Shown in pieces: positions 1-59,324 of a DNA stretch of 64,000 bases. The first letter of the stretch is position 1. Each line of letters begins with the position of its first letter. The DNA is from a virus: positions 1 to 64,000 of the IMG/VR virus record IMGVR_UViG_3300042464_001105; one strand, written 5' to 3'. Both the position numbers and the translations under genes were made by a program. The notes under the pieces are model-generated. The model did not search any database. It was not told where the DNA came from and saw nothing but the letters and a program-made list of their open reading frames with translations.

Positions 1-3000
1 CAGTAAACGTACCATTGTTTTGGAAGGTGCCATTGTTCATATCGAGCGTTCCGCCCGTCCAATTCGCCGCACCATTGTTCTCGAGAATCCGATTCAAATT
101 CCTGCTATTGCCGCTGCCGCTGCTCAAGTTCAACGTCCCGCCCGCTGGGACAATCGTCTTCCCCGTTCCGCTCATCGTTCCGCCGGTCCAGTTCAACACG
201 CCCGTTATCGTCACATCACCAGCCCCGGATAGCGTCCCTAACAAGTTTAGATTGCTTACAGTCGATGCCGCACTAAACGTAGAGGTACCGTTTCCGTTCA
301 GGTTGCTTATGGTCGTTGCCACAGAAAACGTGACGGTTCCACTTATTACTAATGTTCCCGTAGTAGCCATAGCCAGAGGTGCATTGATCGAATAGGTGCC
401 AGTAAGAATAACCGATGCTGAGGCTGCAATTGAAATCAAGCCTCCACTATGCGTCCCGCCCCATAAATTGAGCGTACCGGCTTGGACATCCACGTTGCCG
501 GTGTTGTTGAACCTTACGATTGTGCTACTGCTGCCTGAGCCTGAGAATGGGAACTGCACAGTGCCAGTACCTTGCTTGATAAATGTCCCGTTATTTTCAA
601 AGGCATTCGTTACACCAGAACTAGAGCTTTGCAAAGTAGTTGCCGAGTTAGCAGTAAACGTTCCATTGTTTTGGAAGGTGCCGTTGTTCATTCCGAGCGA
701 TCCTTCCGTCCAATTCGCCGCACCGTTGTTCTCGAGGATCCGACTCAAAGTCTTGCTATTAACGCTGCTCAAGTTCAATGTTCCGCCCGCTGCGACAATC
801 GTCTTCCCTGTTCCGCTCATCGTTCCGCCGGTCCAGTTCAACACACCCGTTATCGTCACATCACCAGCGCCGGATAGCGTCCCTGACAAGTTTAGATTGC
901 TAACAGTTGATGCCGCACTAAACGTAGCGGTTCCGCCTATGTTAAGATTGCTGATGGTCGATGCCACAGAGAATGTTACGGCTCCGTTTACTACCAATGT
1001 TCCCGTAGTAGCCATAGCGAGAGGTGCACTGATTGAATAGGCGTTAAGGTTAACAGTTGCCGAGGCTGCAATTGAAATCAGGCCTCCACTGTGTGTCCCG
1101 CCAATCAACGAGAGCGTTCCGGCTTGGACATCCACGTTGCCTGTGTTGTTAAACGCTACCGTTGTGCTGATGAATTGGAACTGCATAGTGCCAGCACCTT
1201 GCTTGATGAACGTACCAGCGTTTACAAAGGCATTCGTTCCACCAGAACCTTGGCACTGAAGTGTAGTGGCTGAGTTCGCGGTGAAGGTTCCATTGTTTTG
1301 GAAGGTGCCGTTGTTCATTCCGAGCGATCCTTCCGTCCAATTCGCCGCACCGTTGTTCTCGAGGATCCGACTCAAAGTCTTGCTATTAACGCTGCTCAAG
1401 TTCAATGTTCCGCCCGCTGCGACAATCGTCTTCCCTGTTCCGCTCATCGTTCCGCCGGTCCAGTTCAACACACCCGTTATCGTCACATCACCAGCGCCGG
1501 ATAGCGTCCCTGACAAGTTTAGATTGCTAACAGTTGATGCCGCACTAAACGTAGCGGTTCCGCCTATGTTAAGATTGCTGATGGTCGATGCCACAGAGAA
1601 TGTTACGGCTCCGTTTACTACCAATGTTCCCGTAGTAGCCATAGCGAGAGGTGCACTGATTGAATAGGCGTTAAGGTTAACAGTTGCCGAGGCTGCAATT
1701 GAAATCAGGCCTCCACTGTGTGTCCCGCCAATCAACGAGAGCGTTCCGGCTTGGACATCCACGTTGCCTGTGTTGTTAAACGCTACCGTTGTGCTGATGA
1801 ATTGGAACTGCATAGTGCCAGCACCTTGCTTGATGAACGTACCAGCGTTTACAAAGGCATTCGTTCCACCAGAACCTTGGCACTGAAGTGTAGTGGCTGA
1901 GTTCGCGGTGAAGGTTCCATTGTTTTGGAAGGTGCCGTTGTTCATTCCGAGCGATCCTTCCGTCCAATTCGCCGCACCGTTGTTCTCGAGGATCCGATTC
2001 AAAGTCTTGCCAACGCCGCTCAAGTTCAATGTCCCACCAGCTGAGACGATCGACTTGCCGGTTCCCGACATGGTTCCACCAATCCAGTTCAATGGCCCAT
2101 TGATCGTCACATCGCCAGAACCAGATAGGTTGCCGCCGGATAGTGTAAAGGAACTGTTGAGTGTTGCATTTGATTCAATGGATAACGTTCCGCCGGACAG
2201 TGTTATTGGTTTATTAGATAGGAGCGAGTTAATTTGCACATTTCCGGAGCGGATTGTGACTGTGGAACTGCCTAACATGTCGATCAACACATCGTCTGTA
2301 GGACCAGGAACTTGGCCACTATTCCAATTCGTCGCAACATCCCAAAATCCGCCAGCGGGGTTTATGAAGGACGCGGTAAACGGTCTCAACTCAAAGCGAT
2401 TTACAAGGTCGATTGTGCCGAGTTTATTGCCAGCGCGATCCGTTAGGCCCGATGTCTTTGTGGTGAAAGTATATGTGCCAATCGCAAGAGGATTGTAAGT
2501 TAGTTGGATCTGCGAACTGTTGTTTCGCAGTTGGACGTTCACGGGTGCAAATGACAAACCTGCTGAATCTACGAGAGTGAAATTCGAAGGGATAAGCGTT
2601 GCAGGATCCATTCCTTCGCTAAACGACAGCTCAATTGTTCGGAAGTTCTTTCCTTTTATGCTGCCATCCGTTGGATTGATAGCAAACAACGTTGGCGTTG
2701 TAGTATCACGAACAAGGCTCAGGGCAACTACGGGGCTGGTGGTTACGTTTCCGCCAGTATCGGTTGCTCGCACTTGAACGATTGCGGTCGATTTGGTTTC
2801 CGAAATCAGCGGCATCGTTGCGGATAGGTTGTAGGGGAAGCTGAGAGTGCTTTGTACTACCGTACCGTCGACTAGCAGTTCGACATTTCGTACCTGAACA
2901 TCGTCATTGATGTCGGCTTTGATCGAAAGACTGCTTCCCTCGACGACTTGAATACCAGCGGTGATGGGATCCGAATCCATTTTACTAGTGTCGATGCTCG

Positions 3001-6000
3001 CGGTCGGTGCAATTCGCTTACTGTCGAACGACTGGTAATTGATTATTTGCAAATCAGCAGAGCCGCCGGCAACATAGGCTATGCCACCTGCTACAGTCAC
3101 CGAATTGGGTGAAGCGTCTAATGGAAAAGAGGTTACAAACTGGTTGGTCTTGGATGGATCGCGAACATCGAAAACGCTTAGAGATGGAGTTGCCCCTCGG
3201 AAATTTCCTCCGACAGCGACAATGCCAAGTCCTGAACCATTGGCCACAATGTAAGGGTTAGGACTTGCCGAACTCCCCGAGGATGCTGACCCAGCGATCA
3301 ATCTCAAGTTGGTTGGGTCGGAAACATCCGCAGTTGCATATCCCCCAGTTTGGGAACTGAACGCGGACACATAGGCAACACCATTGCCAACAAACAAACT
3401 GCCCCCGCCTTGTGGCATCGTAAGAAATCCCTTCGCGACCATGTTTGGGCCTGAGATGTCGATCGCACGAAGAACACGGGCTACGTCCATAGTAAATAGC
3501 GTTGATCCTTCGCGAGCCAGGCCGGTTATGCTGTTTGAACTTAGACTAAGTACTTGCAACAGCGATCCCGTCTGCATTTCATAGGATTGAAGCCAACCGT
3601 CGACCGCGACGTAAACCACACCATCTTTGACTTCCAATTGTCCCGCGTTGATTGGGACAGTCATTCGATTCGTAGGTTTCGTCGGGTCGGCAACGTCCAG
3701 AATCGACATTCCTCCAGTCCCTGAGGCTACAACAGCAAGACGGGCTGGTGCATCAATTGCAACGTCAACTGAATCACCTGGAAGGTCAATTTGTCCCAAC
3801 AACGTGGGCTTGTTAAACTGAGACACATCGACTAACGCAAGCCCGTAGCTGCCAGTGGCAATATATGCGGTCTGCTTTCCGTTGTTGTCAATGTCCCCTT
3901 GAACAACAATCTGTTTTGCTTCGCCCTGTAGCGGCAGGCTTGCGAGAATACCTGTAGCGACGGCCTTTCCAGATAGTGGATCGAGTCCTTGGGCTATTTC
4001 GGAACTATCACTCACTCCATCATTGTCCGTATCCGCAAGGACGGGATCTGTTCCGATTGCGAATTCTCCCAAGTCCGGAATTCCGTCTCGGTCACTGTCG
4101 GTTCCTGCAAAAACATCTAAATAATATGGCCCGATATTTGTTGGCGAGCCAGCTGTCGACGAATTACCGTCATATTGCGCTGATCGATTTGTCGCGGCGT
4201 TGTACAGGACAACACTAAAGTTTGTCTTTGGTGGAAGAAATGCAGAGAAGCGACCGACATCGGAAGTCATTCCACTTATCTCAACTCCGGAGCCCGTGGT
4301 AATTCGGAAATGAACACGTGGATCGTTTCCGAAACCTTGACCAATGGGAACGAAATTGGTCGAGCTTGCTAGAAATGTGCCACTTGATGCAGCGGAGCTT
4401 GGGGGCTGAATATTGACATGAAAATGCCCATTGTGACCCTTACTAAATCGAACAGAAAGTCCCGTTACCGGCCAATGCTTCGACCAAGTTCGAGGATCAT
4501 TGTAGTATATGGTGCCAACACTTGCCCCTGATTTGGTGGTAACGCTGGAAAATAATTCTATTTGCGAGCGAATTTTTGCTATGTCATAATTCTTTATCTC
4601 AGGGTTGTCGACGATGAACTTGACAATTCGATCAAGAATTGTTTCATTGTCGTACGTCAAATCATGCGTAAGCGCATTTGCAGGTGCTGATGAGTCGGTT
4701 TCGGAGAATTCGGCAAATCCAACTGTGTTGCCTATCATCGTGATAACATGTCGATCTCCGCGTTTGTCCTCCGTGATTCCGGCTGCGACATAGCGTTTTC
4801 CTCCTATCGTATGTGTACGGTAGAACGGGATAGCGATCGCGCGGTCTTCCCATTTCGTTTCCTTTGGTGGCGTATCGAAGTCAATATCAATTCCTGTATA
4901 ATGGCCTTCATGCCCTCTTTGCCCTCCGGGTTTTTCGGAAAGATCATCTACAAGAAGACTCGGTCCTTTATTATTGGCTCCGGCTGACTTGAGAACTTCA
5001 AGCGCCCAACTTGTGCCCCAATCATGTTCGACTTTGGAAACTTCAATATTCGTCCATCCAGGCCCCGATTTTGCATTCTTCAACCAGCTAGGTGCATTGG
5101 CGCTGTTGATCCATGAAAGGTCGATAGTTGCGGATGGATTGAAGACTCCTCTTTTCCCACTTACCGCCGCATTGAACAACCCGATAGCAGACCGTGAACC
5201 ATTACCTAGTATCCCATCAACTGCTATTGTTCTTCCACTCGCTTCAAAAAATCCTAAGTACTTAAGTCTCTGTTGAACTCGAAATGCATCCAGTACTGTC
5301 AAATTGGATGTAACCGCATCCTTCTCGTTTGTTTTGGCGTACGAGTCACGGACATTTATAATCACCTTAACGTTGGCATTGGCTTCACCGCCGTCCTTCA
5401 ATACATGTCTCGCCAACAGATGTAATTCCAATGCTCCAGGATTCTGTGGTACGAAGTATACTGTCGCGGAGTCACGAAGTCCGGATTCCCAATCCGGAAT
5501 TTTGGCGATCGTTCCCCCAATTGCTTTAGTGAAAGAGTACTTCTTCAAAAAACTCAGATTTGCAAGAGAGATCGAGATAACATCACCGAGATTACCCGTG
5601 CGATGTTCCACCCATTCGAGCGTATCACTGTCTTTGTCGTCGGGGGTACCGTCTCCGTCGTCGTCATCATCATTATCGTCTGGCTTTTGGTCATTGTCAT
5701 CATCTGGATCCTTATCATTCGGAATGCCGTCCCCATCCGTATCGTCATCGTCATCCTTATCGCCATCTCCGTCTTTATCTTTATCGCCCTTTTTCCAACC
5801 TTCGTCTCCCGATCGCTTACCCTCTCCTGTGGAACCAGGCGGAGTGAGTCCATGCCAACCGGGTTTCGTTATCCCACTCCCAGCATCCGTTGTTGCTGAT
5901 AAGCCATCAACGCTAACCGTTGATGTACCTTCGATTACTAGCCTCCCTGTTGTATGATCGAAACTAAGATAATTGAGCTTGGTACCTGGCGCTGCCCCGA

Positions 6001-9000
6001 AAACGTTTGGAAAGGTCATCTGGAGCGGCGTATTGAATATTGCTGCTCCTGGGGCTTGGATGGTGATGTCGAATGTGTGTTGCATTAAGCCTGGAGGGAG
6101 CATGTCTCGCACTAATTCGGGCGGTACAGTGCTGATGCCAATTTGGGCGTTAGTTTGCGGTTGCCCGTCTTCCCCTAGAATAGAATTGGGGACTACTTCT
6201 AATTTCAGATTCGAGCGTTGCTCATTGGTTAAATTCGGTGACGATGTACTGTCGACGCCGATGGTCGTTGTTGTCGAGTTGCTGATCGGCTGAAGCATGC
6301 TGTTTTGCAGCCGAGGTAAGTAGACTTCGGTGCGATCGGAATTGGCGACTCGCTCTTCGCGCGTGCCCATCGTTCCCATCACCGTATTGACACTCCCTAC
6401 AATCAATTCCAGATCCATGACCATCTCGGGCCAGAATACGCCCGAAGGTACGTTAGTCGCAGTGCGGCCATCGATGGCTAGCTTGATCGTCCCAGAAGGG
6501 ACAGTGGTGAGTTCGAAGTAGCCGTTTGCATCTGTCGTAACCGATTGCGATTCGCGGCCGAGGATGAAGACTTTGGCTCCCGCGATCGGGCTCAAAAAGA
6601 CGTCATCATTGGTATGCAAGATGCCGTCATTACCAGCCAAGATGTCGTCGCGAGTCATCGCCTTTAAATCGACGCCTGGATCGACGACTCGACCTTGGAT
6701 CGATGTATTCGGCAATGAAGATAGGCTGACCGTGGTGAAGTTGTACGAAAAATCCCCACCAGCTTCGCCATTACCGTCGGCGTCGAGTAGAGAGTCATCG
6801 ACGCCCCTTATCGCATCGCCATCAATATGGACCGTGATGGTGGATGATCCGGGCATCGGACTAGTGAAAAAGAGCCATGCGAACGTGCCGTCTTGGGAGG
6901 GAACAATCGTTGCTGGTAGCTTGGCCCCAGTCGTATCGGTAGCGTAGAAGCTTAGTGGTGTGAGGGTGCTTTTGTCGACTGGTCGCGAAAAGTGGACTTG
7001 GGGCCGGAATGTGCTGCCGATGTCGCTCGAGCCACTGGATGGCGTTTGGTCCGTAATAGTGAGAGGGATAAGGTGGCTGATAGTAAACGTGCGATTAACG
7101 GTAGTTACGAGGCCAGCGGCATCGCGGGCTATAAGCGTTATTGTGTGCGATCCGGGCTGGACCTTGGATAGATCGATTGGAGTGCTAAAGCCACCATCGG
7201 TTGAAGAGAATCTGATAGGGACGCGAGCTCCAGTGCCGATCTGGTAAGTCAGCGAAACGAGATTTGAGCCGGTACCTGAGGCCGTGCCTTCCAAAAATTG
7301 ACCAGCGGTGATAGTTGCTCCTTCGGCTGGGCTAGTGATGCTGGCCGTTGGAACGAGGGTGTCGAGCGTGAAGGTGAAATCGAAGTTGGACGATTGCAGT
7401 CCAGCATGGTCGATCGCAGTAAATCGAATGGTGTGCGTGCCGTTGGATGAACTGTCGAGCGGTAACGACGGTGTAAACGTGAACCGACCACTGGCATTCA
7501 GGCTAAGCGGTTGGCTAATGCCCTCGTTTACTTGTACGGATGCACCGGCGACACCCGATAGATTGTCGATCACCCACCCTTCGATGATTGGATTGGTCGA
7601 CGTTGTGATGTTGTTAGTTGGCGAGAGGAACACAATCGATGGCGCGATAAGATCGTCAGTTAGAGAAAACCGCTCGATAACTTTGTCGGCAACTGATCGA
7701 CCAAGTGACTGCCCATCTTGATTGGAGAATTCGTAGTGAATACCACCATAAATACGGCTGCGTCCAGCTTCCGCGGCAGCTTGAGAGAAACTGATATAGC
7801 TTCGTGTGACGTTTGCTAATCCCTGCGATGTCGTTGTGAAGGCGTAATTGTCTCCGAAGTAGTTTGCGAGCACCCTAGCGGCAGTGGCACTGTAGGTACT
7901 ATGCCCAGAAACGTATTCCGGATGGGGGGGAGTGATCAACAATGGTGTCCAGTTCAAATCAACTGAAGTCGCCGCATTTGAATCGGTGTCGGCTTCGCGA
8001 ATGGCAGTTATCGGTCGCCAAAATTCCTTGCTGTACTTTGTTTTCCACGCGGCAATACTGGAGTCACTTAACGCGATGTTGAGAGTGGCAAAGAGACGGG
8101 CATTCTCTCCGAGGCTTAGATTCTTGTCGGTTGCAATTTGATTTGCTATCTGATTCCAGTGGCCTGGAGGAGTAACCGTCCCTGAGCCATCAGCCCAGAA
8201 TCGAGCTTGTTGCGTTTGGTCAGCGGTTCGTGAAGCGCTAGTTGCTGAGCCGAGGGATTTGACTTCGTTGAAGGCGGTCGACCATTGATCGGAGGTTAGC
8301 GAGGGAGGACCGCTTGGGATGATCGCGTCGATATCGCTAACGCCAAATGGTGTTAGTTCTCCCCATTGCGGCAGTTGAGCTTGATCGTACATAGGGGCAG
8401 TTTGCTGCCAATGGCCGACTGAGTTACTTGGAGTGTAGTCAACGAATCGGTCCCAGCCGTCTTGCTTTCGGAGCGTGATAATAGCGTCAGCGACCAAGGT
8501 TCCAAATGCAATTCCATTTTCTTTGGTGATGGCGTCGAGGATGTTGTTAAGGACGTTGGTTTGTACTATTTCAAGCGATTGCTGCTGTGCCGGAAAAAGA
8601 TACTTCAGAACTTGATAGGCGGCAGAGGAAATGGCCGCTTCGATTGATAGGTTAGCAGGGGCTGAAAGCGATACAAGGTAGCTGGGCGTTTTCTCGATGG
8701 CGTTGAGAGTGTCGAGCATTGCGATACTCATCATGGTCATACCGCGGGTTGCGATAGGTGGTGGTGTCGCATCGCGTTGGATGGCATTGAGTATTGCTTG
8801 ATTCCAAATTAGAACCGGATCGGAAGTTGCGACTTCGTTGACACGGGTAAAACTCTGGCTGCCACTGTTGGTATTGCCAGCAAGATCGGAGACGCTTAGC
8901 TGCAAGTTGTTGGTGCCAACATCGAGACTCACGCTCGGAATCGTAAAGGTACCGTTACCAGTTGTGCGGAATGAGTCAGTGGAGCTATTGAGAGCGATGA

Positions 9001-10084
9001 AGGAATTTGCTTCAGTGGTTCCCAGTAGCGTGACTCGTGAGTTGCGGGTGATTTTATCCCCAATGACACCCGTATCCGAAGACAGTGATAAATCAATACT
9101 TGGAATGCTGGGAACGGTCGTATCGATCATTATCGAACGTGTCTCCAACAATGTGTTACCAGCAATATCAGTCACAGATGCGCTAAGTTGGTGAAGCCCT
9201 TCGGCTAAAGTCGAGGTCGCTTGTGAGAAGGAGCCAGTAGTAATCCCATCAAAAAGAATTGTGTCGCCAACTGTAACTCTGAGCGAAGAATTTGAGTCGG
9301 TTCTGATCTCAACTCTTGGCTTCGTGACACTAGTAATACCGTCGTTTGAGCTTCGCCCCGTATCGTCGCTGGGATCAATTCTTAAAACGCGAAGTGACGG
9401 GGGCATGGTATCGTACGTAAACTCAAGACGTTGATATCCAATACGTCCATCGTCTGACTGGACGAAGACCGTAGCAAAATGGCTTTCATCCGAAACGGGT
9501 TCTTCGGACGAGGCATCGAAAACAAAGGCATTGGATGCCGCGAGTGTAAGAGGCACAACCGATCCTCGATCGAGCCGAGCCTTTATCGTTGCACCTACCC
9601 CCGAACTTAGGTTGACCGAACCATTCAAGACTGGATTGTTCGTAATTTTGTCGATTGCGGAGGCGCCAGAATCAATAGCGAGTGAGAGGCTGGTGGCCAA
9701 TCCGGCCGGATTAGCATTCAAGTGATTAACTACAGATAGCACGTCAAGTGAAGAAAGCGTGAAGTCACCGTCGACATCCAGATAGTTGTTACCCCCAACA
9801 GGTTGCGTGAAGTCGATTTTTGCCCCACCGCCATTCTGGCGATTAATTTCGTTTATTGGAGCCAAGGCATCCAATGGCGACACTGTTCCATCGAAATCGA
9901 CGTCGAGATTCCACAAAGGGTTTTGCCAGTCGGACGCGAGTACCACACGCCCTTCAAGGAGCTCGAAAAACGACCTCCTTGCTACCTTTTTCCGCCAAGT
10001 ACGCAGGCGTTTGGCTGGAAGCGAACGTTTCGAAGCACCTGAAAACAGTTTAGGGAACCATTTGGCGAAAGATCGGAAATGCAT
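1..10084 (-). CDS. Giant multidomain secreted surface protein (3' end outside window)
   Basis: The frame is open from ATG 10084 to the window edge (3361 codons); an in-frame TAG lies just upstream of the ATG. Residues 39-51 carry the planctomycete export motif (FELLEGRVVLAS), and two dockerin/EF-hand-like stretches follow (58-83, 102-124). After Ig-like domains comes a vanadium haloperoxidase/PAP2-type domain (about 410-800) with all three signatures: KX6RP near 681, SGHS near 726, SRX5H near 773. Ig-like and CnaB-like domains follow, then an Asp-rich stretch (about 1430-1480), a peptidoglycan-binding-like segment, and a LAS-type metallopeptidase-like domain (about 1675-1895; GHYTGID and GHFHV supply the H-x4-D and H-x-H ligands). 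Then come TSP3-like repeats, LVIVD-type propeller repeats and, from about residue 2560, Asn/Gly/Thr beta-strand repeats. Probably cell-surface or secreted. Domain calls are by motif; enzymatic activity is inferred. No stop or frameshift was seen. Confidence 0.85.
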   Translation of the reverse strand, partial: MHFRSFAKWFPKLFSGASKRSLPAKRLRTWRKKVARRSFFELLEGRVVLASDWQNPLWNLDVDFDGTVSPLDALAPINEINRQNGGGAKIDFTQPVGGNNYLDVDGDFTLSSLDVLSVVNHLNANPAGLATSLSLAIDSGASAIDKITNNPVLNGSVNLSSGVGATIKARLDRGSVVPLTLAASNAFVFDASSEEPVSDESHFATVFVQSDDGRIGYQRLEFTYDTMPPSLRVLRIDPSDDTGRSSNDGITSVTKPRVEIRTDSNSSLRVTVGDTILFDGITTGSFSQATSTLAEGLHQLSASVTDIAGNTLLETRSIMIDTTVPSIPSIDLSLSSDTGVIGDKITRNSRVTLLGTTEANSFIALNSSTDSFRTTGNGTFTIPSVSLDVGTNNLQLSVSDLAGNTNSGSQSFTRVNEVATSDPVLIWNQAILNAIQRDATPPPIATRGMTMMSIAMLDTLNAIEKTPSYLVSLSAPANLSIEAAISSAAYQVLKYLFPAQQQSLEIVQTNVLNNILDAITKENGIAFGTLVADAIITLRKQDGWDRFVDYTPSNSVGHWQQTAPMYDQAQLPQWGELTPFGVSDIDAIIPSGPPSLTSDQWSTAFNEVKSLGSATSASRTADQTQQARFWADGSGTVTPPGHWNQIANQIATDKNLSLGENARLFATLNIALSDSSIAAWKTKYSKEFWRPITAIREADTDSNAATSVDLNWTPLLITPPHPEYVSGHSTYSATAARVLANYFGDNYAFTTTSQGLANVTRSYISFSQAAAEAGRSRIYGGIHYEFSNQDGQSLGRSVADKVIERFSLTDDLIAPSIVFLSPTNNITTSTNPIIEGWVIDNLSGVAGASVQVNEGISQPLSLNASGRFTFTPSLPLDSSSNGTHTIRFTAIDHAGLQSSNFDFTFTLDTLVPTASITSPAEGATITAGQFLEGTASGTGSNLVSLTYQIGTGARVPIRFSSTDGGFSTPIDLSKVQPGSHTITLIARDAAGLVTTVNRTFTISHLIPLTITDQTPSSGSSDIGSTFRPQVHFSRPVDKSTLTPLSFYATDTTGAKLPATIVPSQDGTFAWLFFTSPMPGSSTITVHIDGDAIRGVDDSLLDADGNGEAGGDFSYNFTTVSLSSLPNTSIQGRVVDPGVDLKAMTRDDILAGNDGILHTNDDVFLSPIAGAKVFILGRESQSVTTDANGYFELTTVPSGTIKLAIDGRTATNVPSGVFWPEMVMDLELIVGSVNTVMGTMGTREERVANSDRTEVYLPRLQNSMLQPISNSTTTTIGVDSTSSPNLTNEQRSNLKLEVVPNSILGEDGQPQTNAQIGISTVPPELVRDMLPPGLMQHTFDITIQAPGAAIFNTPLQMTFPNVFGAAPGTKLNYLSFDHTTGRLVIEGTSTVSVDGLSATTDAGSGITKPGWHGLTPPGSTGEGKRSGDEGWKKGDKDKDGDGDKDDDDDTDGDGIPNDKDPDDDNDQKPDDNDDDDDGDGTPDDKDSDTLEWVEHRTGNLGDVISISLANLSFLKKYSFTKAIGGTIAKIPDWESGLRDSATVYFVPQNPGALELHLLARHVLKDGGEANANVKVIINVRDSYAKTNEKDAVTSNLTVLDAFRVQQRLKYLGFFEASGRTIAVDGILGNGSRSAIGLFNAAVSGKRGVFNPSATIDLSWINSANAPSWLKNAKSGPGWTNIEVSKVEHDWGTSWALEVLKSAGANNKGPSLLVDDLSEKPGGQRGHEGHYTGIDIDFDTPPKETKWEDRAIAIPFYRTHTIGGKRYVAAGITEDKRGDRHVITMIGNTVGFAEFSETDSSAPANALTHDLTYDNETILDRIVKFIVDNPEIKNYDIAKIRSQIELFSSVTTKSGASVGTIYYNDPRTWSKHWPVTGLSVRFSKGHNGHFHVNIQPPSSAASSGTFLASSTNFVPIGQGFGNDPRVHFRITTGSGVEISGMTSDVGRFSAFLPPKTNFSVVLYNAATNRSAQYDGNSSTAGSPTNIGPYYLDVFAGTDSDRDGIPDLGEFAIGTDPVLADTDNDGVSDSSEIAQGLDPLSGKAVATGILASLPLQGEAKQIVVQGDIDNNGKQTAYIATGSYGLALVDVSQFNKPTLLGQIDLPGDSVDVAIDAPARLAVVASGTGGMSILDVADPTKPTNRMTVPINAGQLEVKDGVVYVAVDGWLQSYEMQTGSLLQVLSLSSNSITGLAREGSTLFTMDVARVLRAIDISGPNMVAKGFLTMPQGGGSLFVGNGVAYVSAFSSQTGGYATADVSDPTNLRLIAGSASSGSSASPNPYIVANGSGLGIVAVGGNFRGATPSLSVFDVRDPSKTNQFVTSFPLDASPNSVTVAGGIAYVAGGSADLQIINYQSFDSKRIAPTASIDTSKMDSDPITAGIQVVEGSSLSIKADINDDVQVRNVELLVDGTVVQSTLSFPYNLSATMPLISETKSTAIVQVRATDTGGNVTTSPVVALSLVRDTTTPTLFAINPTDGSIKGKNFRTIELSFSEGMDPATLIPSNFTLVDSAGLSFAPVNVQLRNNSSQIQLTYNPLAIGTYTFTTKTSGLTDRAGNKLGTIDLVNRFELRPFTASFINPAGGFWDVATNWNSGQVPGPTDDVLIDMLGSSTVTIRSGNVQINSLLSNKPITLSGGTLSIESNATLNSSFTLSGGNLSGSGDVTINGPLNWIGGTMSGTGKSIVSAGGTLNLSGVGKTLNRILENNGAANWTEGSLGMNNGTFQNNGTFTANSATTLQCQGSGGTNAFVNAGTFIKQGAGTMQFQFISTTVAFNNTGNVDVQAGTLSLIGGTHSGGLISIAASATVNLNAYSISAPLAMATTGTLVVNGAVTFSVASTISNLNIGGTATFSAASTVSNLNLSGTLSGAGDVTITGVLNWTGGTMSGTGKTIVAAGGTLNLSSVNSKTLSRILENNGAANWTEGSLGMNNGTFQNNGTFTANSATTLQCQGSGGTNAFVNAGTFIKQGAGTMQFQFISTTVAFNNTGNVDVQAGTLSLIGGTHSGGLISIAASATVNLNAYSISAPLAMATTGTLVVNGAVTFSVASTISNLNIGGTATFSAASTVSNLNLSGTLSGAGDVTITGVLNWTGGTMSGTGKTIVAAGGTLNLSSVNSKTLSRILENNGAANWTEGSLGMNNGTFQNNGTFTANSATTLQSSSSGVTNAFENNGTFIKQGTGTVQFPFSGSGSSSTIVRFNNTGNVDVQAGTLNLWGGTHSGGLISIAASASVILTGTYSINAPLAMATTGTLVISGTVTFSVATTISNLNGNGTSTFSAASTVSNLNLLGTLSGAGDVTITGVLNWTGGTMSGTGKTIVPAGGTLNLSSGSGNSRNLNRILENNGAANWTGGTLDMNNGTFQNNGTFT
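661..1914. repeat. Two tandem 627-bp repeats inside the giant gene
   Basis: Bases 661-1287 and 1288-1914 appear identical wherever I compared them (209 codons per unit). A third, partial copy starts at 1915 and diverges after about 90 bp. A more divergent unit of similar length lies at about 15-660. The repeat length is a multiple of three, so the minus-strand frame is kept. Identity at silent positions points to a recent duplication or gene conversion; an assembly artefact is possible but the flanking copies differ. Confidence 0.85.
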
Positions 10085-10275
10085 AGTTCTATTGCTCTAC
10101 CTGCCCCCGATGATTCGCTTGAGCGTTAGGTTGCGGCCACTTAAAGCCAACCTATTGTCAAAACGGCGAAATCATTCGCTCCCTCCTATGGTTAGAAGGA
10201 TGTCAATCGGTTCCAGACTGTTCGGATAGGGAAGCACATTGGTTTGCAATTACTACTTTGCAATCAAATCGGATG

Positions 10276-10302
10276 GATCCATGGGCTCCCCATGATCATG
10301 GG
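10276..10302. repeat. Nested palindrome in intergenic DNA
   Basis: Bases 10289-10302 form a perfect 14-bp palindrome (CCCATGA/TCATGGG). The right part can pair instead with the preceding GATCCATGGG at 10276-10285, giving two alternative hairpins. A short GC-rich inverted repeat (GGGCC...GGCCC) follows at about 10320-10335. No T-run follows, so it is not an obvious Rho-independent terminator. Function unknown. Confidence 0.5.
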
Positions 10303-10594
10303 ACAAAAGTGAAATCGAGGGCCGGCGGGCCCCCCTTCAACCCTCCTAGGCGGATTTGCCATCAAAACCGAATGCAAAATTCTTAGATTTGCTAAAGTTT
10401 CTCCGACGCTTAAAAATTTGGACCTGCAAAATGGGTTCTCAGGCGATCGAATTCGGCCGGGAACGCGAAGGAACCAGGAGGCAAAGCCAGCAGCTATGTA
10501 GTACCTTTCCCGAACGAAAAAAAAGTTGCATGTCGGCAATGGCTTTATCGCAAAAGACCTTGGGTCGCGCCAAACCACGTCTACGTGACCCTGC

Positions 10595-10850
10595 CCGACC
10601 GAAGCATAATTTTCGTCCGCGGAAAAGAAATGACCGCGAGAATTCCAGTGTTGAACCTTATCCACGTCCACCAGCCGCACATAAGCTTCATGAACTAGGC
10701 TGTGGCTTGCCGCGTATGCTCCGGACATTCGCTGGCCATTCGAGCTGCGGCCAGTCGGCGGAGCTCTTCATAGACGAGCGGTGGCAGCTTCTCTGCTGCT
10801 GTAGGATCAACGGATTCGATTTGCGAAAGAATATGCTTGACTTCTGACAT
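10595..10850 (-). pseudogene. Decayed ECF-type sigma factor gene
   Basis: Reading leftward from ATG 10850, the N-terminus MSEVKHILSQIE...PLVYEELRRLAA is that of the ECF-like sigma factors common in planctomycetes (TIGR02999-like). After about 50 codons the family sequence jumps to another frame, resuming as LVHEAYVRLVDVD and WNSRGHFF. Past that point (about 10600) the homology is lost and no region-4 helix-turn-helix follows. So the gene has a frameshift and a 3' truncation and cannot make a working sigma factor. It is most likely host DNA, near the left edge of the phage-like region. Confidence 0.75.
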
Positions 10851-11328
10851 AGGCGTGCCGTATTTGGAGGGATGTTCAAATGAAGCGGGAATGCCCAAAC
10901 CGCTCGATTGTAGCAACTCGAGCACTTCATTGCGTCAGAATTCTGGCCGCTGGATGTCCAGTGTCCATAGTTGGAAACGATTGAAAAGAGTTTCATTGCG
11001 TCTGCGAAGTTGCCCATCTCCAAGGCTGTATTTCGGGGTCGTGGAACTCAGAGCAGTTGCATCGACTTCGGCTTCGAACAGTCGGAGTTTTTTCGAATTC
11101 AATCCTCACCGGTCACCCAAACGTCACCCAAACCGGAGCGACTTAGATTCTGTGCGATCCTGATTTTTGACCTTATCGATTTTTCCGGTTTTCCGGCCTG
11201 GGGTGACCACAGTTGTCAACTCTTCGCCGTCTGATAGATCGCCAAAAGGAAAAATAGCTAGCACTCGCTGGCGGCAGTTCTGACTTCATGGACGGACACA
11301 ATGAGCCGCATTTTGTATCAGGAATATC
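10851..11328. other. Intergenic stretch with no supported gene
   Basis: Reading frames here are short and have no recognisable products. An 11-bp unit, GTCACCCAAAC, is directly repeated at about 11109-11131. The right part probably holds the promoter of the gene at 11329, but no convincing -35/-10 pair stands out. Confidence 0.4.
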
Positions 11329-23324: not shown

Positions 23325-24728
23325 ATGAAAATCGAAATGTGGTCGATCGACCAGGTCAAGCCGTACGAAAACAATCCTCGCATTAATGATGATGCGGTCG
23401 CTTCAGTCGCCGCATCCATTCGAGAGTTTGGATTCCAGCAACCTTTGGTAGTTGATTCTGCCGGCGTCATCATCGTCGGCCATACGCGTTTGAAGGCGGC
23501 GATCAAACTCGGTCTCGATCGGGTCCCGATCCTGGTAGCCACCAACCTCACGCCGGAACAGGTCCGAGCCTATCGCATTGCCGACAACAAGACAGCCGAG
23601 CTTGCCGAATGGAATTATGACTTGCTGCCGATCGAATTGTCGGCATTGCAGGAAGCCAACTACGATCTCTGCCTGCTGGGGTTCAGTGCCGATGAGTTGG
23701 CAAAGTTGATGGACACCGGCGTCAACGAGGGGCTCACCGATCCAGATGATGTTCCCTTGCCACCCGACGATGCGATCACACAACCAGGCGATCTTTGGAT
23801 TCTTGGAAATCATCGGTTGCTTTGTGGTGACTCTTCAAATCCAGAACATCTTGATCGACTGCTCGCAGGCAAGCCTATCCATCTTGTGAACACGGACCCG
23901 CCGTACAACGTCAAGGTTGAACCGCGAAGCAAGAACGCAATCGCAGCCGGCTTGAGTTCGTTTACCAACGATGCCGCGTCGTCGAAGCTGAAGAACGACC
24001 AGGGCATGGCAGCGTTCACGCATGCGATCAATCAGAAGAACAAGTCCAAGACCGGCGCGGCGGCAACGGCGACCGCAAACGCACCTCGGCAAAAGATGCG
24101 AGCCAAGGATCGCCCGCTTGCGAATGACTTCGTTTCCGATGATGAGTTCGATCGATTGCTCGACGCATGGTTCGGAAACATTGCACGTGTGCTGGTCCCC
24201 GGGGGCTGCTTCTACATCTGGGGTGGTTACGCCAACTGCGGCAACTATCCCCCGTTCCTGAAGAAGCATGGATTGTACTTCAGCCAAGCGATCATCTGGA
24301 ACAAGATGCATCCGGTTTTGACACGTAAAGATTTTATGGGCGCTCACGAGTGGGCGTTCTATGGATGGAACGAAGGTGCCGGCCACAAGTACTATGGGCC
24401 GAACAACGAAACCGATTTGTGGAATGTTAAGAAGATCCCGCCACAACAACTTGAGCATCTGACTGGCAAGCCTGCCGAGCTCGCGGTTCGATCAATTCAG
24501 TACTCGTCGCTTCCTGGCCACAACGTACTCGACCTCTTCGGTGGCAGCGGCTCAACCTTGATTGGCGCTGAGCAGACTGGACGCAATGCGTTCTTAATGG
24601 AACTCGATTGTCCATACGCAGACGTAATCGTTGATCGGTACCAAAGGTTCACCGGCAAGCAAGCGATTCTCGAGCGAACGGGTGAGTCACCGATTCCGAT
24701 GAAGCCACGTGAAGCGAACATGCGATAG
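23325..24728 (+). CDS. ParB-domain / DNA methyltransferase fusion
   Basis: Starts at ATG 23325 after GGAGGG (467 aa). Residues 1-130 are a ParB-like domain (VKPYENNPRINDDAV, GHTRLKAAIKLG, RIADNKTAE). The rest is an amino-methyltransferase of beta-class order: catalytic DPPY near residue 190, then the SAM-binding LFGGSGSTLIGAE near 402. Such fusions are common in phages and methylate adenine-N6 or cytosine-N4; the target site cannot be read from the sequence. No restriction partner lies next to it, so it is probably an orphan methylase protecting or regulating phage DNA. About 60 low-complexity residues (Ala/Thr/Lys-rich) lie between motif IV and the target-recognition region. Confidence 0.9.
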   Translation: MKIEMWSIDQVKPYENNPRINDDAVASVAASIREFGFQQPLVVDSAGVIIVGHTRLKAAIKLGLDRVPILVATNLTPEQVRAYRIADNKTAELAEWNYDLLPIELSALQEANYDLCLLGFSADELAKLMDTGVNEGLTDPDDVPLPPDDAITQPGDLWILGNHRLLCGDSSNPEHLDRLLAGKPIHLVNTDPPYNVKVEPRSKNAIAAGLSSFTNDAASSKLKNDQGMAAFTHAINQKNKSKTGAAATATANAPRQKMRAKDRPLANDFVSDDEFDRLLDAWFGNIARVLVPGGCFYIWGGYANCGNYPPFLKKHGLYFSQAIIWNKMHPVLTRKDFMGAHEWAFYGWNEGAGHKYYGPNNETDLWNVKKIPPQQLEHLTGKPAELAVRSIQYSSLPGHNVLDLFGGSGSTLIGAEQTGRNAFLMELDCPYADVIVDRYQRFTGKQAILERTGESPIPMKPREANMR

Positions 24729-24738
24729 GAGGTCGCGT

Positions 24739-25056
24739 TCAAAGTTTATGACAATGCCAAGCTTGATCCTCGAAAACATAAACGTACTCAGTACCACAGT
24801 TCCTTGCGAACTCGTGGAGGGCAGCGCGCGTTGGCATGGCGACCGCGTTATTGCCAGCGGTAAATCGCTCCGGACTACCGTCGTTAGCGAGCGATCGAAT
24901 ATCGCCGCCAGCAACAAGCGTCCGTACCGAATCAATAGCGATGTAGTTTTGTTCGAGAATCTTGCCGGCATGGTCTGGGTAACCATCGAAGTGCAGATAG
25001 ATCGCCGCATACCGACCATCGTCTTGCTTGCAAGCGATCGTGGCTCGTGTAGACAT
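24739..25056 (-). CDS. Conserved small phage protein, 105 aa
   Basis: Starts at ATG 25056 after AAGGA. The opening MSTRATIACKQDDGRYAAIY followed by HFDGYPDHAG belongs to a small family seen in many phages and mobile elements ('YxHxDGYP' proteins). It contains conserved histidine and tyrosine residues but no known catalytic set. It is the last gene of the leftward accessory cluster and runs tail to tail with the methyltransferase. Function unknown. Confidence 0.8.
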   Translation of the reverse strand: MSTRATIACKQDDGRYAAIYLHFDGYPDHAGKILEQNYIAIDSVRTLVAGGDIRSLANDGSPERFTAGNNAVAMPTRAALHEFARNCGTEYVYVFEDQAWHCHKL

Positions 25057-25068
25057 GTTTTGTGTTCC

Positions 25069-25293
25069 TTACTTCGATGGTTCGTGATGGTTGGGTTCGA
25101 CGATAGAGACGCAATCGTCAGGCATCGTCAACATGAGGGTTCGACCGTTGTCCCAATCAACATCGATCTGCGTCCAGTCGCGATGATCGTAAACGGCGAC
25201 AACGGTTCCGAGCGATCCAACGGGAATCGGATCGGGATCCTGCAGCATCGACACCAAACGGATGCGATCGCCTTGCTTCAATCGTGTTTTCAT
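25069..25293 (-). CDS. DUF4314 small protein
   Basis: 74 aa. The pattern GDRIRLVSMLQDPDPIPVGSLGTV, then VDWDNGRTL and a closing DDCVSIV, fits DUF4314, a small SH3/KOW-like barrel found in phage accessory regions. It may bind nucleic acid or protein; no role is established. Upstream (25338-25373) is a copy of the element shared by this cluster. It lies 12 bp from the next gene and is probably cotranscribed with it. Confidence 0.8.
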   Translation of the reverse strand: MKTRLKQGDRIRLVSMLQDPDPIPVGSLGTVVAVYDHRDWTQIDVDWDNGRTLMLTMPDDCVSIVEPNHHEPSK

Positions 25294-25337
25294 AGTTGTT
25301 GGTTCCTTACTGTGAGCGAAGCAAAAAAATACGAACC

Positions 25338-25373
25338 GTCACAATCAGCCAGCAAGTCAAGAAAACATCAAGC
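25338..25373 (-). promoter_or_regulatory. Accessory-cluster element, most divergent copy
   Basis: Read leftward it has GCTTGATGT, then a spacer, then GGCTGATTGTGACG, ending 44 bp before the start at 25293. It keeps the GCTTGATGT and TGTG parts seen upstream of other cluster genes, but not the CATG-N3-CATG core. Treat it as a weak member of the family. Confidence 0.4.
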
Positions 25374-25542
25374 CGACATCCAAGCTTGTTTTCTAGATTT
25401 CTTGCAAATATGTGGATCCGCCGGAGAAGCTCAGGGTTGCGTTGTGTCGCGTTGCATTTCAGGTTGGGTTTGTGCCCGTATCCACGAGGAAAAGCCCACA
25501 CGTTGCAAACGTTGGGCGATTGGTGTGGGATCCAGCGAAGTA

Positions 25543-25962
25543 TTAATCTCGACTCGGAACCAACACGCATGCTCCGTCACCAGTGATTGGGTACTCCTTC
25601 AGTTCGCTTGTCCTTGCGAACAACTGGTCGCTTCGACGTATCACGTAGTCAACGTATGCGAAGCACTCGGTATCATCAATCCGCCTGAGTTGGTACCGAA
25701 CTCCCGGTTCAGGAACAGCGATCTGTTCGACGTACAGGTCCGAGATGGTCTTCACTTCGTCAATGTAAGGGCCGGCTGGTCGCAAAATGCCCAGCGTGCT
25801 GCGAAACGAAATGCGTTGGCCTGTTGCTTGGTTGGTGGCGATGATATGTGTGGTCTCGCCAGCCTTCGACGGCTGAAAGATCGATTCGACCTTGACGATG
25901 ATCGTCTTACCACAATGGCAAGCGACATACCGCTCGCCAATCCGGATGTCTTTGGCTCGCAT
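25543..25962 (-). CDS. Hypothetical accessory protein, 139 aa
   Basis: Starts at ATG 25962, three bases after the upstream gene's stop. The N-terminal half (IRIGERYVACHCGK ... ATNQATGQRISF) resembles the N-terminus of the upstream neighbour (TIGGKYYANVSCNR ... ATNLATGKKVLI), so the two probably share a small barrel domain with a Cys pair and arose by duplication. The C-terminal part is different, with no known motif. Probably cotranscribed with the HARE-HTH gene. Function unknown. Confidence 0.7.
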   Translation of the reverse strand: MRAKDIRIGERYVACHCGKTIIVKVESIFQPSKAGETTHIIATNQATGQRISFRSTLGILRPAGPYIDEVKTISDLYVEQIAVPEPGVRYQLRRIDDTECFAYVDYVIRRSDQLFARTSELKEYPITGDGACVLVPSRD

Positions 25963-25965
25963 GAT

Positions 25966-26544
25966 CTAGCCCCGTACCGTAAAGCGGCCGCGTTCTGTTT
26001 TGACAAACTTGCTGTCGTCGCCCTTGGCCAGGTCGCGAAGGATCGCGCTATACAAGGTCGCGTGCGGAGTCTTGCCCCCAGGACTCGACCAGTAACCCTT
26101 GGCTTCCATCGCGGTAACCAACTCTTGAGCATTCATCGGTTCGGAGGATTCGCCAAGGACCTTCAAAGCCGCCGTGACGCAACTCAATCGCTTCTCGCTG
26201 GCGTCGGCGCTTTCCGTCGCTGTTGCTGCAGTCTTTGCCTTACGAAGCTTCTTTGGAACCGCCCCTACTGTGGATGCTGCTTCTCCAATCGTCTCGACCG
26301 TAGCCGGTTCGTTCTCAACAATCGTGACGTTACCTTCTGTGGTTACCTTCGCGCCTCCGCGCCGCATGCCGACTTCACCCTGCAAGCGCTGAGCGCTCTT
26401 GATCAGGACCTTCTTACCGGTCGCGAGGTTGGTGGCATCCCAGCCACCGCGCGGCTTCTCGGCGTCGATCTGGATCTCACATCGATTGCAAGAAACGTTT
26501 GCATAGTACTTGCCGCCGATCGTAACTTCTGCCTTCTTCATCAT
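25966..26544 (-). CDS. HARE-HTH domain protein
   Basis: Starts at ATG 26544 after GGGAGAAAG (192 aa). Residues 1-55 form the barrel-like domain shared with the next gene, including CNRC. An Ala/Thr-rich linker follows (about 60-115). The C-terminal 75 residues match the HARE-HTH (HB1/ASXL) winged helix: SCVTAALKVLGESSEPMNAQELVTAMEAKGYW ... TLYSAILRDL. HARE-HTH modules bind DNA and are often attached to restriction enzymes, methylases or chromatin proteins. Here it may sense modified DNA or act as a cluster regulator; that is inference. Confidence 0.75.
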   Translation of the reverse strand: MMKKAEVTIGGKYYANVSCNRCEIQIDAEKPRGGWDATNLATGKKVLIKSAQRLQGEVGMRRGGAKVTTEGNVTIVENEPATVETIGEAASTVGAVPKKLRKAKTAATATESADASEKRLSCVTAALKVLGESSEPMNAQELVTAMEAKGYWSSPGGKTPHATLYSAILRDLAKGDDSKFVKTERGRFTVRG

Positions 26545-26634
26545 TCTTTCTCCCAATTCGTATTCGTGGTTGGCTGCCATCGTCAGGTCGATCGAACCAC
26601 CGATCAACTACGCGATTCCGTTCCGCGTTTCGGC

Positions 26635-26970
26635 TTATTTGGAAAAGACCAAGTCGGCCAATCCGGTAGAAAGAAAATCCACAATCACCTGAATCTCTGT
26701 ATTAGCCGCAGGTACATCCAATCCGCGGTCAAAGCTAAAAAGTGTTTTGTGGTCGGCGATTCGTTCGATCCAAAGTTTCGAGATCTTGCTCTTGCCCAAT
26801 TCGTAGTCTTCGCTTTTTGCGTGCTCGGCGAAAACCAAAGCGTTGAACTTGTATTGCTCGTTGACCGTTCCAATCACCCAGGTACCGCCACCCGTGGTGC
26901 GTCGATCGATCTTGGTGATCGTCAGGTCGAGGTCTATGTCGTTTTCCCCGTTGTTGTTTGTCTTTGTCAT
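26635..26970 (-). CDS. Hypothetical accessory protein, 111 aa
   Basis: The start is ATG 26970 after CGGAGACG; the in-frame ATG at 27003 lies next to the shared promoter-like element and is less likely. The protein is soluble and beta-rich, with TGGGTWVIGTVNEQYKFNALVF resembling a single-domain sheet. No cysteines, signal or membrane segment. The element copy at 27011-27053 ends 41 bp upstream. Function unknown. Confidence 0.7.
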   Translation of the reverse strand: MTKTNNNGENDIDLDLTITKIDRRTTGGGTWVIGTVNEQYKFNALVFAEHAKSEDYELGKSKISKLWIERIADHKTLFSFDRGLDVPAANTEIQVIVDFLSTGLADLVFSK

Positions 26971-27010
26971 CTTTGCGTCTCCGTTTTGAAAAGCTGTGAA
27001 CATCGTTTTG

Positions 27011-27053
27011 CGTCAACACACAGTTCGCATGCGCTTCGCATTACATCAAGCGC
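27011..27053 (-). promoter_or_regulatory. Accessory-cluster element, copy D
   Basis: Read leftward: GCTTGATGT, spacer, GCGAAGCGCATG, then CTGTGTGTTGACGC. The GCATG and TGTGTGTT parts match the other copies. It lies about 41 bp upstream of the start codon at 26970. Confidence 0.5.
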
Positions 27054-27105
27054 TGTTGGAAAAGATTCAGATAATTCTTTTCCACAGCGCCGCGGTTCGT
27101 CGCGA

Positions 27106-27378
27106 TCAGAAATCTCGACACGTCTCCCAAGCTCGTTTGCTGCCGTAGCAGATCTGCCCACCTTCGACGATGTAGACCGTGTTGTCATCGGCAACGTCTT
27201 GGGCATCGTCTTCGTCCGCATCTTCGTCGCTTGCTTCGTTCATGTCGCGGCCGCTGGTCACGCCGAAGATACGGTTCTCGAAAGGCCAATTCTGCTGAGT
27301 CATCAACCGTATTTTGGCGTCGCCTCCGAACTCTTCGCGGTAGTCGTTGAGGATTTCGATCAAGGTGTCGAGGTTCAT
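27106..27378 (-). CDS. Acidic hypothetical protein, 90 aa
   Basis: Starts at ATG 27378 after CGGAGATAAG. The N-terminal half (LDTLIEILNDYREEFGGDAKIRLM ... ENRIFGV) resembles a family of small phage proteins with a helix and strand pattern; the centre is very acidic (DEDADEDDAQD). Such acidic proteins can act as DNA mimics, but nothing proves that here. It has its own upstream element (27418-27442). Confidence 0.7.
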   Translation of the reverse strand: MNLDTLIEILNDYREEFGGDAKIRLMTQQNWPFENRIFGVTSGRDMNEASDEDADEDDAQDVADDNTVYIVEGGQICYGSKRAWETCRDF

Positions 27379-27417
27379 GTTCTTATCTCCGTTGGGGTGA
27401 ATGAAAAGTCGTTTTCC

Positions 27418-27442
27418 GATAACACACATGAGCCATGCGGTT
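27418..27442 (-). promoter_or_regulatory. Accessory-cluster element, copy A
   Basis: This 25-mer is identical to 27904-27928. Read leftward its core is CGCATG, GCT, CATGTGTG, then TTATC. The CATG-N3-CATG centre has dyad symmetry (CGCATG against CATGTG). It ends 39 bp before the start at 27378. Confidence 0.65.
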
Positions 27443-27663
27443 TGAACCGAAGCAACTCAAATCCAGAAGGTTTTCCCAGTCTTTTGGAATGTTTTTTTGA
27501 ATGCCCAACGGTGCACAACGTTGGCGCATGTCGCGTCGTTTTCGAAGTCGCATTGTTGGGCGTGGCGAGCCAGCAGGATGCGACGGTGGGCGAGTGTGTC
27601 GACCAAGCGAGAAAACGCCGCGCATCCGTACGCGGCGTTCTAGGGATATTGCTTGTGCGCTGT

Positions 27664-27861
27664 TTAAAGGATCGAACCGAGTCGGCTCTTCTTCATCGCT
27701 TCGAGTGCTTCGCAGGCGTAAAGGTGTTCGACGAGCAAAGGGCATGCGGACTCTTGTTGTGCTGCGTCGGCGATCTCGAGGGCGTCTGCCAAGGTTCGCA
27801 ATCCCTCGATCTCTCGAAGAGCGGCGTCGGTTGCTTTGTGTTCGTTGCTGTTCTTGGCCAT
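27664..27861 (-). CDS. Small helical protein, 65 aa
   Basis: Starts at ATG 27861 after CGGAGACAG. A charged N-terminus is followed by a helical, Ala/Glu/Leu-rich body (LREIEGLRTLADALEIADAAQQ) with two cysteines. There is no known motif. It has its own control element 42 bp upstream and belongs to the leftward phage accessory cluster. Function unknown. Confidence 0.65.
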   Translation of the reverse strand: MAKNSNEHKATDAALREIEGLRTLADALEIADAAQQESACPLLVEHLYACEALEAMKKSRLGSIL

Positions 27862-27903
27862 GGTTCTGTCTCCGTTGTGGGAAAGGGTTTGAATCGTTTA
27901 TGC

Positions 27904-27945
27904 GATAACACACATGAGCCATGCGGTTCAAAACACATCAAGCGC
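27904..27945 (-). promoter_or_regulatory. Accessory-cluster element, copy B
   Basis: Bases 27904-27928 are identical to copy A over 25 bp. Further upstream, read leftward, the GCGCTTGATGT segment is shared with copy D. It ends 42 bp before the start at 27861. Confidence 0.65.
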
Positions 27946-28155
27946 AGTATGCGAGTAAATGGAAAAGATTCTGCAGCTTTCTTCCGGTGCCGACACAAAG
28001 CACAAAACGCGACGTGTGGCGTTCAAAAAAAGCTTGGGTCGCCATTAGTTACTTACCCCAAGGATGCGACTGCTGGCGGACGTTACGATCGAGAATGCCA
28101 GAACAACGAACTACGTCGAGCGATTCTGCTCGGCGTAGTTCGTGGATCTCGTTTC

Positions 28156-29016: not shown

Positions 29017-29070
29017 CGTTCTGTTCCTTTGTGGTTCAAGGTGTGTTTTGCGTCGCGCTTTCCGCGTCGC

Positions 29071-29111
29071 GATGACACAATGGAGCCATGCGTTTCGAGG
29101 ATCATCCAGCC
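29071..29111 (-). promoter_or_regulatory. Accessory-cluster element, copy C
   Basis: Read leftward: GGCTGGATGAT, then ACGCATGGCTCCATTGTG, then TCATCGC. It keeps the GCATGGCTC and TGTG parts of copies A and B and lies 54 bp upstream of the amidoligase start, the farthest spacing in the set. Confidence 0.5.
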
Positions 29112-29290
29112 GCTTCCTGCATGTTTTTTCAGTAATTGTGCATGTTTTCTGAGAGGCAACCGGTGCCCCAACATTACGCCACGGTGGCGTCCAAACATGC
29201 ATCGCATAACAAGGCGAACATGCAAACAAAACGCGACTGTGGCGAACGTGTCGCAACCAGTGGCAATTCAACGGATCATGGAGGAATGGG

Positions 29291-58649: not shown

Positions 58650-58650
58650 T

Positions 58651-59262: not shown

Positions 59263-59324
59263 GTCAGTGATTGCAACTTAGTGACGACTTAAAACCAATT
59301 TCATTTAGCTTTCGACGATACACC

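What the first reader, a model, noticed from the sequence alone, without database searches (positions are those of the whole stretch)
1..10084. One giant secreted protein combines haloperoxidase-type and murein-peptidase-type domains
The open frame joins a planctomycete export motif and dockerin-like repeats to a PAP2/vanadium haloperoxidase domain with all three active-site motifs (KX6RP, SGHS, SRX5H) and a LAS-type metallopeptidase-like domain (HxxxxD and HxH), followed by a propeller and fibrous repeats. Two enzyme-type domains inside one giant surface protein is an unusual architecture. The dockerin-like motif at the N-terminal end could allow assembly with cohesin partners.
Basis: partly seen in the sequence, partly recalled or inferred. 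Interest (0 to 1): 0.6.

Follow-up and report, generated by a model that had tools for sequence, protein, structure and literature searches.

The report
Haloperoxidase surface protein with swappable peptidase slot
A giant bacterial surface protein carries a complete vanadium-haloperoxidase domain (the kind that makes reactive halogen) and, further along, a cell-wall-peptidase domain; relatives keep the haloperoxidase but carry quite different peptidases, or none, in that second position, so it looks like a chassis with an exchangeable enzyme slot.

Summary
Window 2-10084 (-) is one open frame of 3361 residues, cut off by the contig end inside C-terminal repeats. Residues 412-812 are a full vanadium-haloperoxidase (VHPO) domain: all catalytic residues are present, and the model (pLDDT 92.5) matches the Zobellia iodoperoxidase at TM 0.84. 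Residues 1598-1895 are a peptidoglycan-binding-like domain plus an M74-like LAS peptidase with all six conserved His/Asp residues. Dockerin is confirmed.

Between these blocks they carry unrelated inserts: metzincin-like, leishmanolysin-like (M8), M15 LAS, helical, carbohydrate-binding-like, or nothing. On the scaffold tree VHPO presence needs one change; slot type needs 11 among 19 proteins, as many as shuffled labels. The LAS cassette recurs in other giant planctomycete proteins, often with lost metal ligands, but here it is intact. Among the genomes searched I saw VHPO plus M74 only here.

The gene is a host gene beside a prophage and a BREX locus. Most likely it is a secreted surface fibre making hypohalous acid and presenting an exchangeable hydrolase. 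Catalysis is inferred, not shown.

The parts
2..10084 (-). open frame of the giant secreted protein (3361 aa, C-terminus cut by the contig end)
9932..10084 (-). N-terminal export region, residues 1-51, ending in the LLEGRVVLAS motif
   Evidence: by eye; same kind of motif in relatives; PF07595 model not hit
9716..9904 (-). type I dockerin, residues 61-123, two canonical Ca loops (DVDFDGTVSPLD, DVDGDFTLSSLD)
   Evidence: Dockerin_1 E=1.3e-8 on the fragment
8855..9697 (-). Ig-like domains including Big_13, residues 130-410
7649..8851 (-). vanadium haloperoxidase domain, residues 412-812; W680, K683, R690, H721, S726, H728, R777, H783
6635..7642 (-). Ig-like domains after the VHPO (Big_13, Big_7), residues 815-1150
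5813..6628 (-). carboxypeptidase-regulatory-like domain plus conserved domain without Pfam match ending in PGWHGLTPPG (1408-1417); left border of the slot
5630..5812 (-). Asp/Gly-rich linker, residues 1425-1485
   Evidence: sequence
5369..5629 (-). N-terminal part of the LAS cassette, residues 1486-1572, shared with L047
   Evidence: alignment 1480-1897 to L047
5090..5293 (-). peptidoglycan-binding-like domain, residues 1598-1665
4400..5089 (-). M74-like LAS metallopeptidase domain, residues 1666-1895; H1725, H1728, D1735, H1884, H1887, H1889
3035..4372 (-). right border of the slot and LVIVD propeller region, residues 1905-2350
2405..3022 (-). Ig-like domains Big_7 and Big_5, residues 2355-2560
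2..2392 (-). fibrous repeats with a 209-aa unit, running into the contig end

Best explanation
This is a secreted, probably cell-surface, giant protein built on a conserved chassis: export motif, dockerin, Ig domains, VHPO, Ig domains, carboxypeptidase-regulatory-like domain, PGWHG domain, SLOT, LVIVD propeller, Ig domains, fibrous repeats. The VHPO is a fixed part of one clade; the slot is refilled by recombination with different cassettes, mostly metallopeptidases. Here the slot holds a peptidoglycan-binding-like domain plus an M74-like LAS peptidase. Most likely mode of action (inferred): the protein stands off the cell on its repeats. The VHPO uses H2O2 to oxidise bromide or iodide to hypohalous acid or a halogenated product near the surface. 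The slot peptidase cleaves peptide cross-links in peptidoglycan of neighbouring or prey cells, or trims the cell's own wall. Shown: domain identity, intact active-site residues, chassis conservation and slot turnover. Inferred: secretion, catalysis, substrates and the co-operation of the two domains.
For: VHPO identity and fold. LAS/M74 identity with all metal and catalytic residues. Chassis: residues ~240-1424 align at 41-51% to relatives in two phyla, and ~1902-2590 at 32-46%. Slot contents: M15_3 E=1e-8 (L122), M8 E=1.3e-9 (L014), metzincin-like HExxHxxGxxH/D in G001, G002, G004/G005, G009 (two copies) and three VHPO-less members, nothing in G006 (63 aa) and G719. Tree: VHPO 1 change; slot type 11 changes against a shuffled mean of 10.4. 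The LAS cassette recurs in other giant planctomycete frames.
Against: No activity is shown. The LAS domain has no usable structure model. Most metzincin assignments rest on the zinc motif and sub-threshold Pfam scores. About 8 of 19 readable slots hold no recognisable peptidase. Homologous LAS cassettes in other giant proteins have often lost ligands, so a binding-only role is possible. Slot types were assigned by me, several contigs end in or near the slot, and eight inner branches of the tree are weak.
Confidence: 0.6

Rival explanations
1. The slot domains are adhesion or wall-anchoring modules, not working peptidases: the PG-binding plus LAS part holds the fibre in the cell's own or a neighbour's peptidoglycan, and only the VHPO works as an enzyme.
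For: A peptidoglycan-binding-like domain precedes the LAS domain; LAS cassettes in other giant proteins have lost metal or catalytic residues (L166-L170); several slots hold carbohydrate-binding-like or helical parts, or nothing.
Against: All six LAS residues are intact in this window; four different metallopeptidase types occupy the same slot, which argues for selection for peptidase activity.
Confidence: 0.25
2. Chance modularity: giant planctomycete surface proteins shuffle domains freely, and the presence of a haloperoxidase and a peptidase in one chain has no joint function.
For: Slot type is as scattered as shuffled labels; LAS cassettes occur in many unrelated giant frames; peptidases fill only 11 of 19 slots.
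Against: The chassis on both sides of the slot is conserved in order across two phyla, and the VHPO stays with full catalytic residues throughout one clade.
Confidence: 0.25
3. The VHPO-fold domain acts as a phosphatase or catalyses halide-free chemistry rather than halide oxidation.
For: VHPOs share the fold with acid phosphatases; NapH3, a homolog that catalyses a rearrangement, also matches.
Against: Best match is a characterised iodoperoxidase over the whole domain (TM 0.84), far ahead of phosphatases (E 2e-21 against 1e-4); all VHPO residues are present.
Confidence: 0.2
4. The gene is phage cargo carried by the virus record.
For: The record is held as a virus and 11-54 kb is a prophage.
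Against: No viral relatives of either enzyme domain; close relatives are bacterial genes; opposite strand to the phage genes; planctomycete export motif; BREX and GmrSD genes on the other flank.
Confidence: 0.04

Closest known systems
Zobellia galactanivorans vanadium iodoperoxidase (PDB 4cit/4usz)
   Same: Whole VHPO domain fold (TM 0.84) and all vanadate-site residues
   Different: Stand-alone enzyme there; here one domain of a giant protein, 27% identical. The residue at the chloroperoxidase F397 position is His here (H721) and Phe in the Zobellia enzyme (alignment)
E. coli MepA (peptidase family M74, PDB 1tzp)
   Same: H, H-x6-D and HxxHxH metal/catalytic signature; profile match E=8e-4, Pfam M74 E=8e-7
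   Different: Free periplasmic enzyme; here preceded by a PG-binding-like domain, with a long insertion between the two motif halves, embedded in a giant chain
Giant planctomycete exoproteins with dockerin, cadherin or Ig repeats (PMC11573180)
   Same: Size class, dockerin, Ig repeats, export motif
   Different: The survey's text does not mention peroxidase or peptidase; here a conserved VHPO chassis with an exchangeable slot
Polymorphic toxin proteins (PMC3482391)
   Same: Conserved carrier with exchangeable effector cassette, peptidases among the cassettes (abstract and general knowledge; paper not read in full)
   Different: There the variable domain is C-terminal; here the variable slot is internal, flanked by conserved blocks on both sides, and no immunity gene was looked for

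Membership tests
Vanadium-dependent haloperoxidase | KX6RP, SGH and RX5H vanadate-binding residues | tested here: met
   K683, R690, S726, H728, R777, H783; the Lys, both Arg and the last His are invariant in 29 sequences and H728 nearly so
Vanadium-dependent haloperoxidase | VHPO helical-bundle fold | tested here: met
   model pLDDT 92.5, 4usz TM 0.84 E=2.4e-21
Vanadium-dependent haloperoxidase | Pfam VCPO/PAP2 curated cut-off | tested here: not met
   PAP2 23.3 of 27.2 bits, VCPO_2nd 23.3 of 27. The cut-off is a threshold of a library model, not a property of the enzymes; filed as VHPO on fold and residues
Vanadium-dependent haloperoxidase | vanadate-dependent halide oxidation | not testable with these tools
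   needs an assay
Peptidase M74 / LAS metallopeptidases | H-x6-D and HxH metal ligands plus catalytic His | tested here: met
   H1728, D1735, H1889 and H1884, H1887
Peptidase M74 / LAS metallopeptidases | Pfam M74 curated cut-off | tested here: inconclusive
   29.3 bits on the fragment (cut-off 25), but 22.4 in the whole protein and only positions 17-86 of 240
Peptidase M74 / LAS metallopeptidases | LAS fold around one metal | tested here: inconclusive
   single-sequence model pLDDT 33, not usable
Type I dockerin | two Ca-binding F-hand loops, Dockerin_1 above cut-off | tested here: met
   35.3 bits, cut-off 22.9; loops at 61-74 and 103-116
Type I dockerin | cohesin partner in the same genome | tested here: inconclusive
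   own genome not held; cohesins in 4 of 11 relative genomes
PF07595 planctomycete extracellular motif | model hit at the N-terminus | tested here: inconclusive
   LLEGRVVLAS by eye, no model hit at E<=0.1

The most novel reading that the evidence does not exclude
A cross-phylum family of haloperoxidase-bearing surface fibres in which an internal slot, bordered by conserved domains, is repeatedly refilled with different hydrolases, mainly peptidases: an internal-cassette analogue of polymorphic effector proteins that couples hypohalous-acid chemistry to proteolysis or murein cleavage.
Probability: 0.35. Interest if true: 0.65.

Novelty: new variant of a known kind. Interest (0 to 1): 0.5.

Why it matters
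Bacterial VHPOs are known mainly as free enzymes. A VHPO fixed into a giant surface chassis with a swappable hydrolase slot would give those enzymes a contact-dependent role (attack, defence or feeding at surfaces) and gives a concrete, testable reason for the size of some giant planctomycete proteins. It also offers ready-made pairs of proteins that share a scaffold but differ in the slot, in one case within one genome (G459), for direct experiments.

Tried and rejected
Viral relatives of the LAS or VHPO domain: none. Genome-contig scan with the LAS domain: none. AlphaFold of the LAS domain without an alignment: unusable; homologous cassettes came from the genome search, which is not on the structure tool's stated list of sources, so I did not hand them in. 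Alignment A1 was too diverse for a collection scan. Phage-cargo reading rejected on context and relatives. Tandem Repeats Finder saw nothing because the repeat period exceeds its limit; the repeat finder resolved it. Literature: three papers hold both 'vanadium-dependent haloperoxidase' and 'planctomycet', each term once; searches for dockerin or metallopeptidase combinations and for LEPR-XLL showed no title describing this architecture; only open-licence papers are held and I read few of them. No tRNA in the window.

Full report
WHAT IS THERE. Window 2-10084 on the minus strand is a single open frame of 3361 residues. It runs off the start of an 88,177-base record held as a virus, so the C-terminal end is unknown; the break lies in repeats with a 627-nt unit, a likely cause of the assembly end. 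Order of parts: export region with LLEGRVVLAS, dockerin 61-123, Ig domains, VHPO 412-812, Ig domains, carboxypeptidase-regulatory-like domain, a conserved domain without Pfam match ending in PGWHGLTPPG (1408-1417), an Asp/Gly-rich linker, a PG-binding-like domain at about 1598-1665, an M74-like LAS domain 1666-1895, LVIVD propeller region, Ig domains, repeats.

VHPO. The domain matches the Zobellia iodoperoxidase at E=3e-34 over 524-811. An alignment of 29 homologs keeps the Lys, both Arg and the last His invariant. The AlphaFold model from that alignment has mean pLDDT 92.5, and Foldseek finds 4usz first (TM 0.84), fungal chloroperoxidase next (TM about 0.8) and acid phosphatases far behind. 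H721 sits where chloroperoxidase has F397 and, from general knowledge, algal bromoperoxidases have His; the Zobellia enzyme has Phe there (alignment). I do not predict the halide from this: relatives vary at this position, and a recent study argues that specificity cannot be traced to one residue (PMC11871015).

LAS DOMAIN. Pfam M74 matches at E=8e-7 on the fragment, but only over the first third of the model. A profile of eight homologous cassettes finds MepA at E=8e-4 and PG-binding domains of other wall enzymes. H1728, D1735 and H1889 (ligands) with H1884 and H1887 are all present. The fold could not be modelled from one sequence. The same cassette, often only in part, occurs in 8 of 392 Planctomycetota genomes and in 23 of 199 genomes of one family, largely in giant frames; the five longer examples aligned from that family survey (L166-L170) all lack one or more ligand or catalytic residues. 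The window's copy is intact.

CHASSIS AND SLOT. Relatives were found through the VHPO and in genome surveys: Planctomycetota, Ramlibacter, Nitrosospira, Accumulibacter, Rhodospirillales. They align to the window over residues ~240-1424, nearly all VHPO-bearing ones at 45-51% identity, and again over ~1902-2590 at 32-46%. The stretch between is not conserved. Window: PG-binding plus M74-like LAS. G459 second copy: M15_3, E=1e-8. G010: leishmanolysin M8, E=1.3e-9. G001, G002, G004/G005 and two copies in G009: metzincin-like HExxHxxG followed by HYDIN/ASH Ig domains. G459 first copy: Gly-rich and beta-rich, unidentified. G504, G012, G878, G756: apparently helical, with no similarity to one another. 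G713: galactose-binding-like, below cut-off. G006: only 63 residues. Four further members (G790, G747, G009 third copy, G719) have the chassis without VHPO; three have a metzincin-like slot and one has none.

TURNOVER TEST. A maximum-likelihood tree of the block left of the slot (24 proteins) separates VHPO-bearing from VHPO-less proteins by one change. Slot type needs 11 changes among 19 proteins; shuffled labels need 10.4 on average. So the slot shows no tendency to follow the scaffold tree, whereas the VHPO does. Limits: the types are my own assignment, the tree has eight weak inner branches, and several contigs end near the slot. Full chassis proteins are uncommon: 2 of 392 Planctomycetota genomes (three copies) and 3 of 300 genomes of the Ramlibacter order.

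CONTEXT. 11.3-54 kb on the plus strand is a prophage (exonuclease, primase, terminase, capsid/protease, tape measure). A GmrSD-type gene and brxA, brxB and brxC follow. The giant gene is therefore most likely host DNA at the flank.

MECHANISM. Shown: domain identities, intact residues, conserved chassis, slot turnover. Inferred: export to the surface, halide oxidation with H2O2, murein cleavage, and a joint role. I put 0.6 on the chassis-with-slot explanation in which both domains are catalytic, and lower values on the anchoring, chance-modularity and phosphatase readings listed as rivals; those are not mutually exclusive, so the confidences do not sum to one.

NOVELTY. Each part is known. The combination and the internal exchangeable slot were not found in the open literature I could search, which is not proof of absence. 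I call it a new variant of a known kind.

Noticed in passing
window 10264-10925 (-): Broken remnant of a planctomycete ECF sigma factor (PF07638, E=3e-6 for part) in two frames just upstream of the giant gene.
   Followed up: partly
window 11329-54226 (+): Prophage with NrS-1-like primase, GpA-type terminase, a fused head-maturation protease and capsid protein (34240-36429), and tape measure; a 1529-aa frame at 24709-29298 and a 1000-aa frame at 39613-42615 have no Pfam or PHROG match.
   Followed up: partly
window 55372-57552 (-) and 58026-64000 (+): GmrSD restriction gene with a C-terminal RAMA domain, followed by a BREX locus (brxA, brxB, brxC) that runs past the window.
   Followed up: partly
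L122:4473-8279 and L122:8096-14524: The chassis gene carrying the M15-type slot (G459) is split into two overlapping frames just after the VHPO region: a frameshift or sequencing error.
   Followed up: no
L166, L167, L168, L169, L170: LAS cassettes in other giant planctomycete proteins with lost metal or catalytic residues: possible non-catalytic LAS domains.
   Followed up: partly
G844:C2, G219:C73, G752:C1: Open frames of 11,600-14,300 aa carrying partial matches to the LAS cassette.
   Followed up: no
G878: The genome of the nearest chassis relative has nine cohesin matches, in frames of up to 11,506 aa.
   Followed up: no
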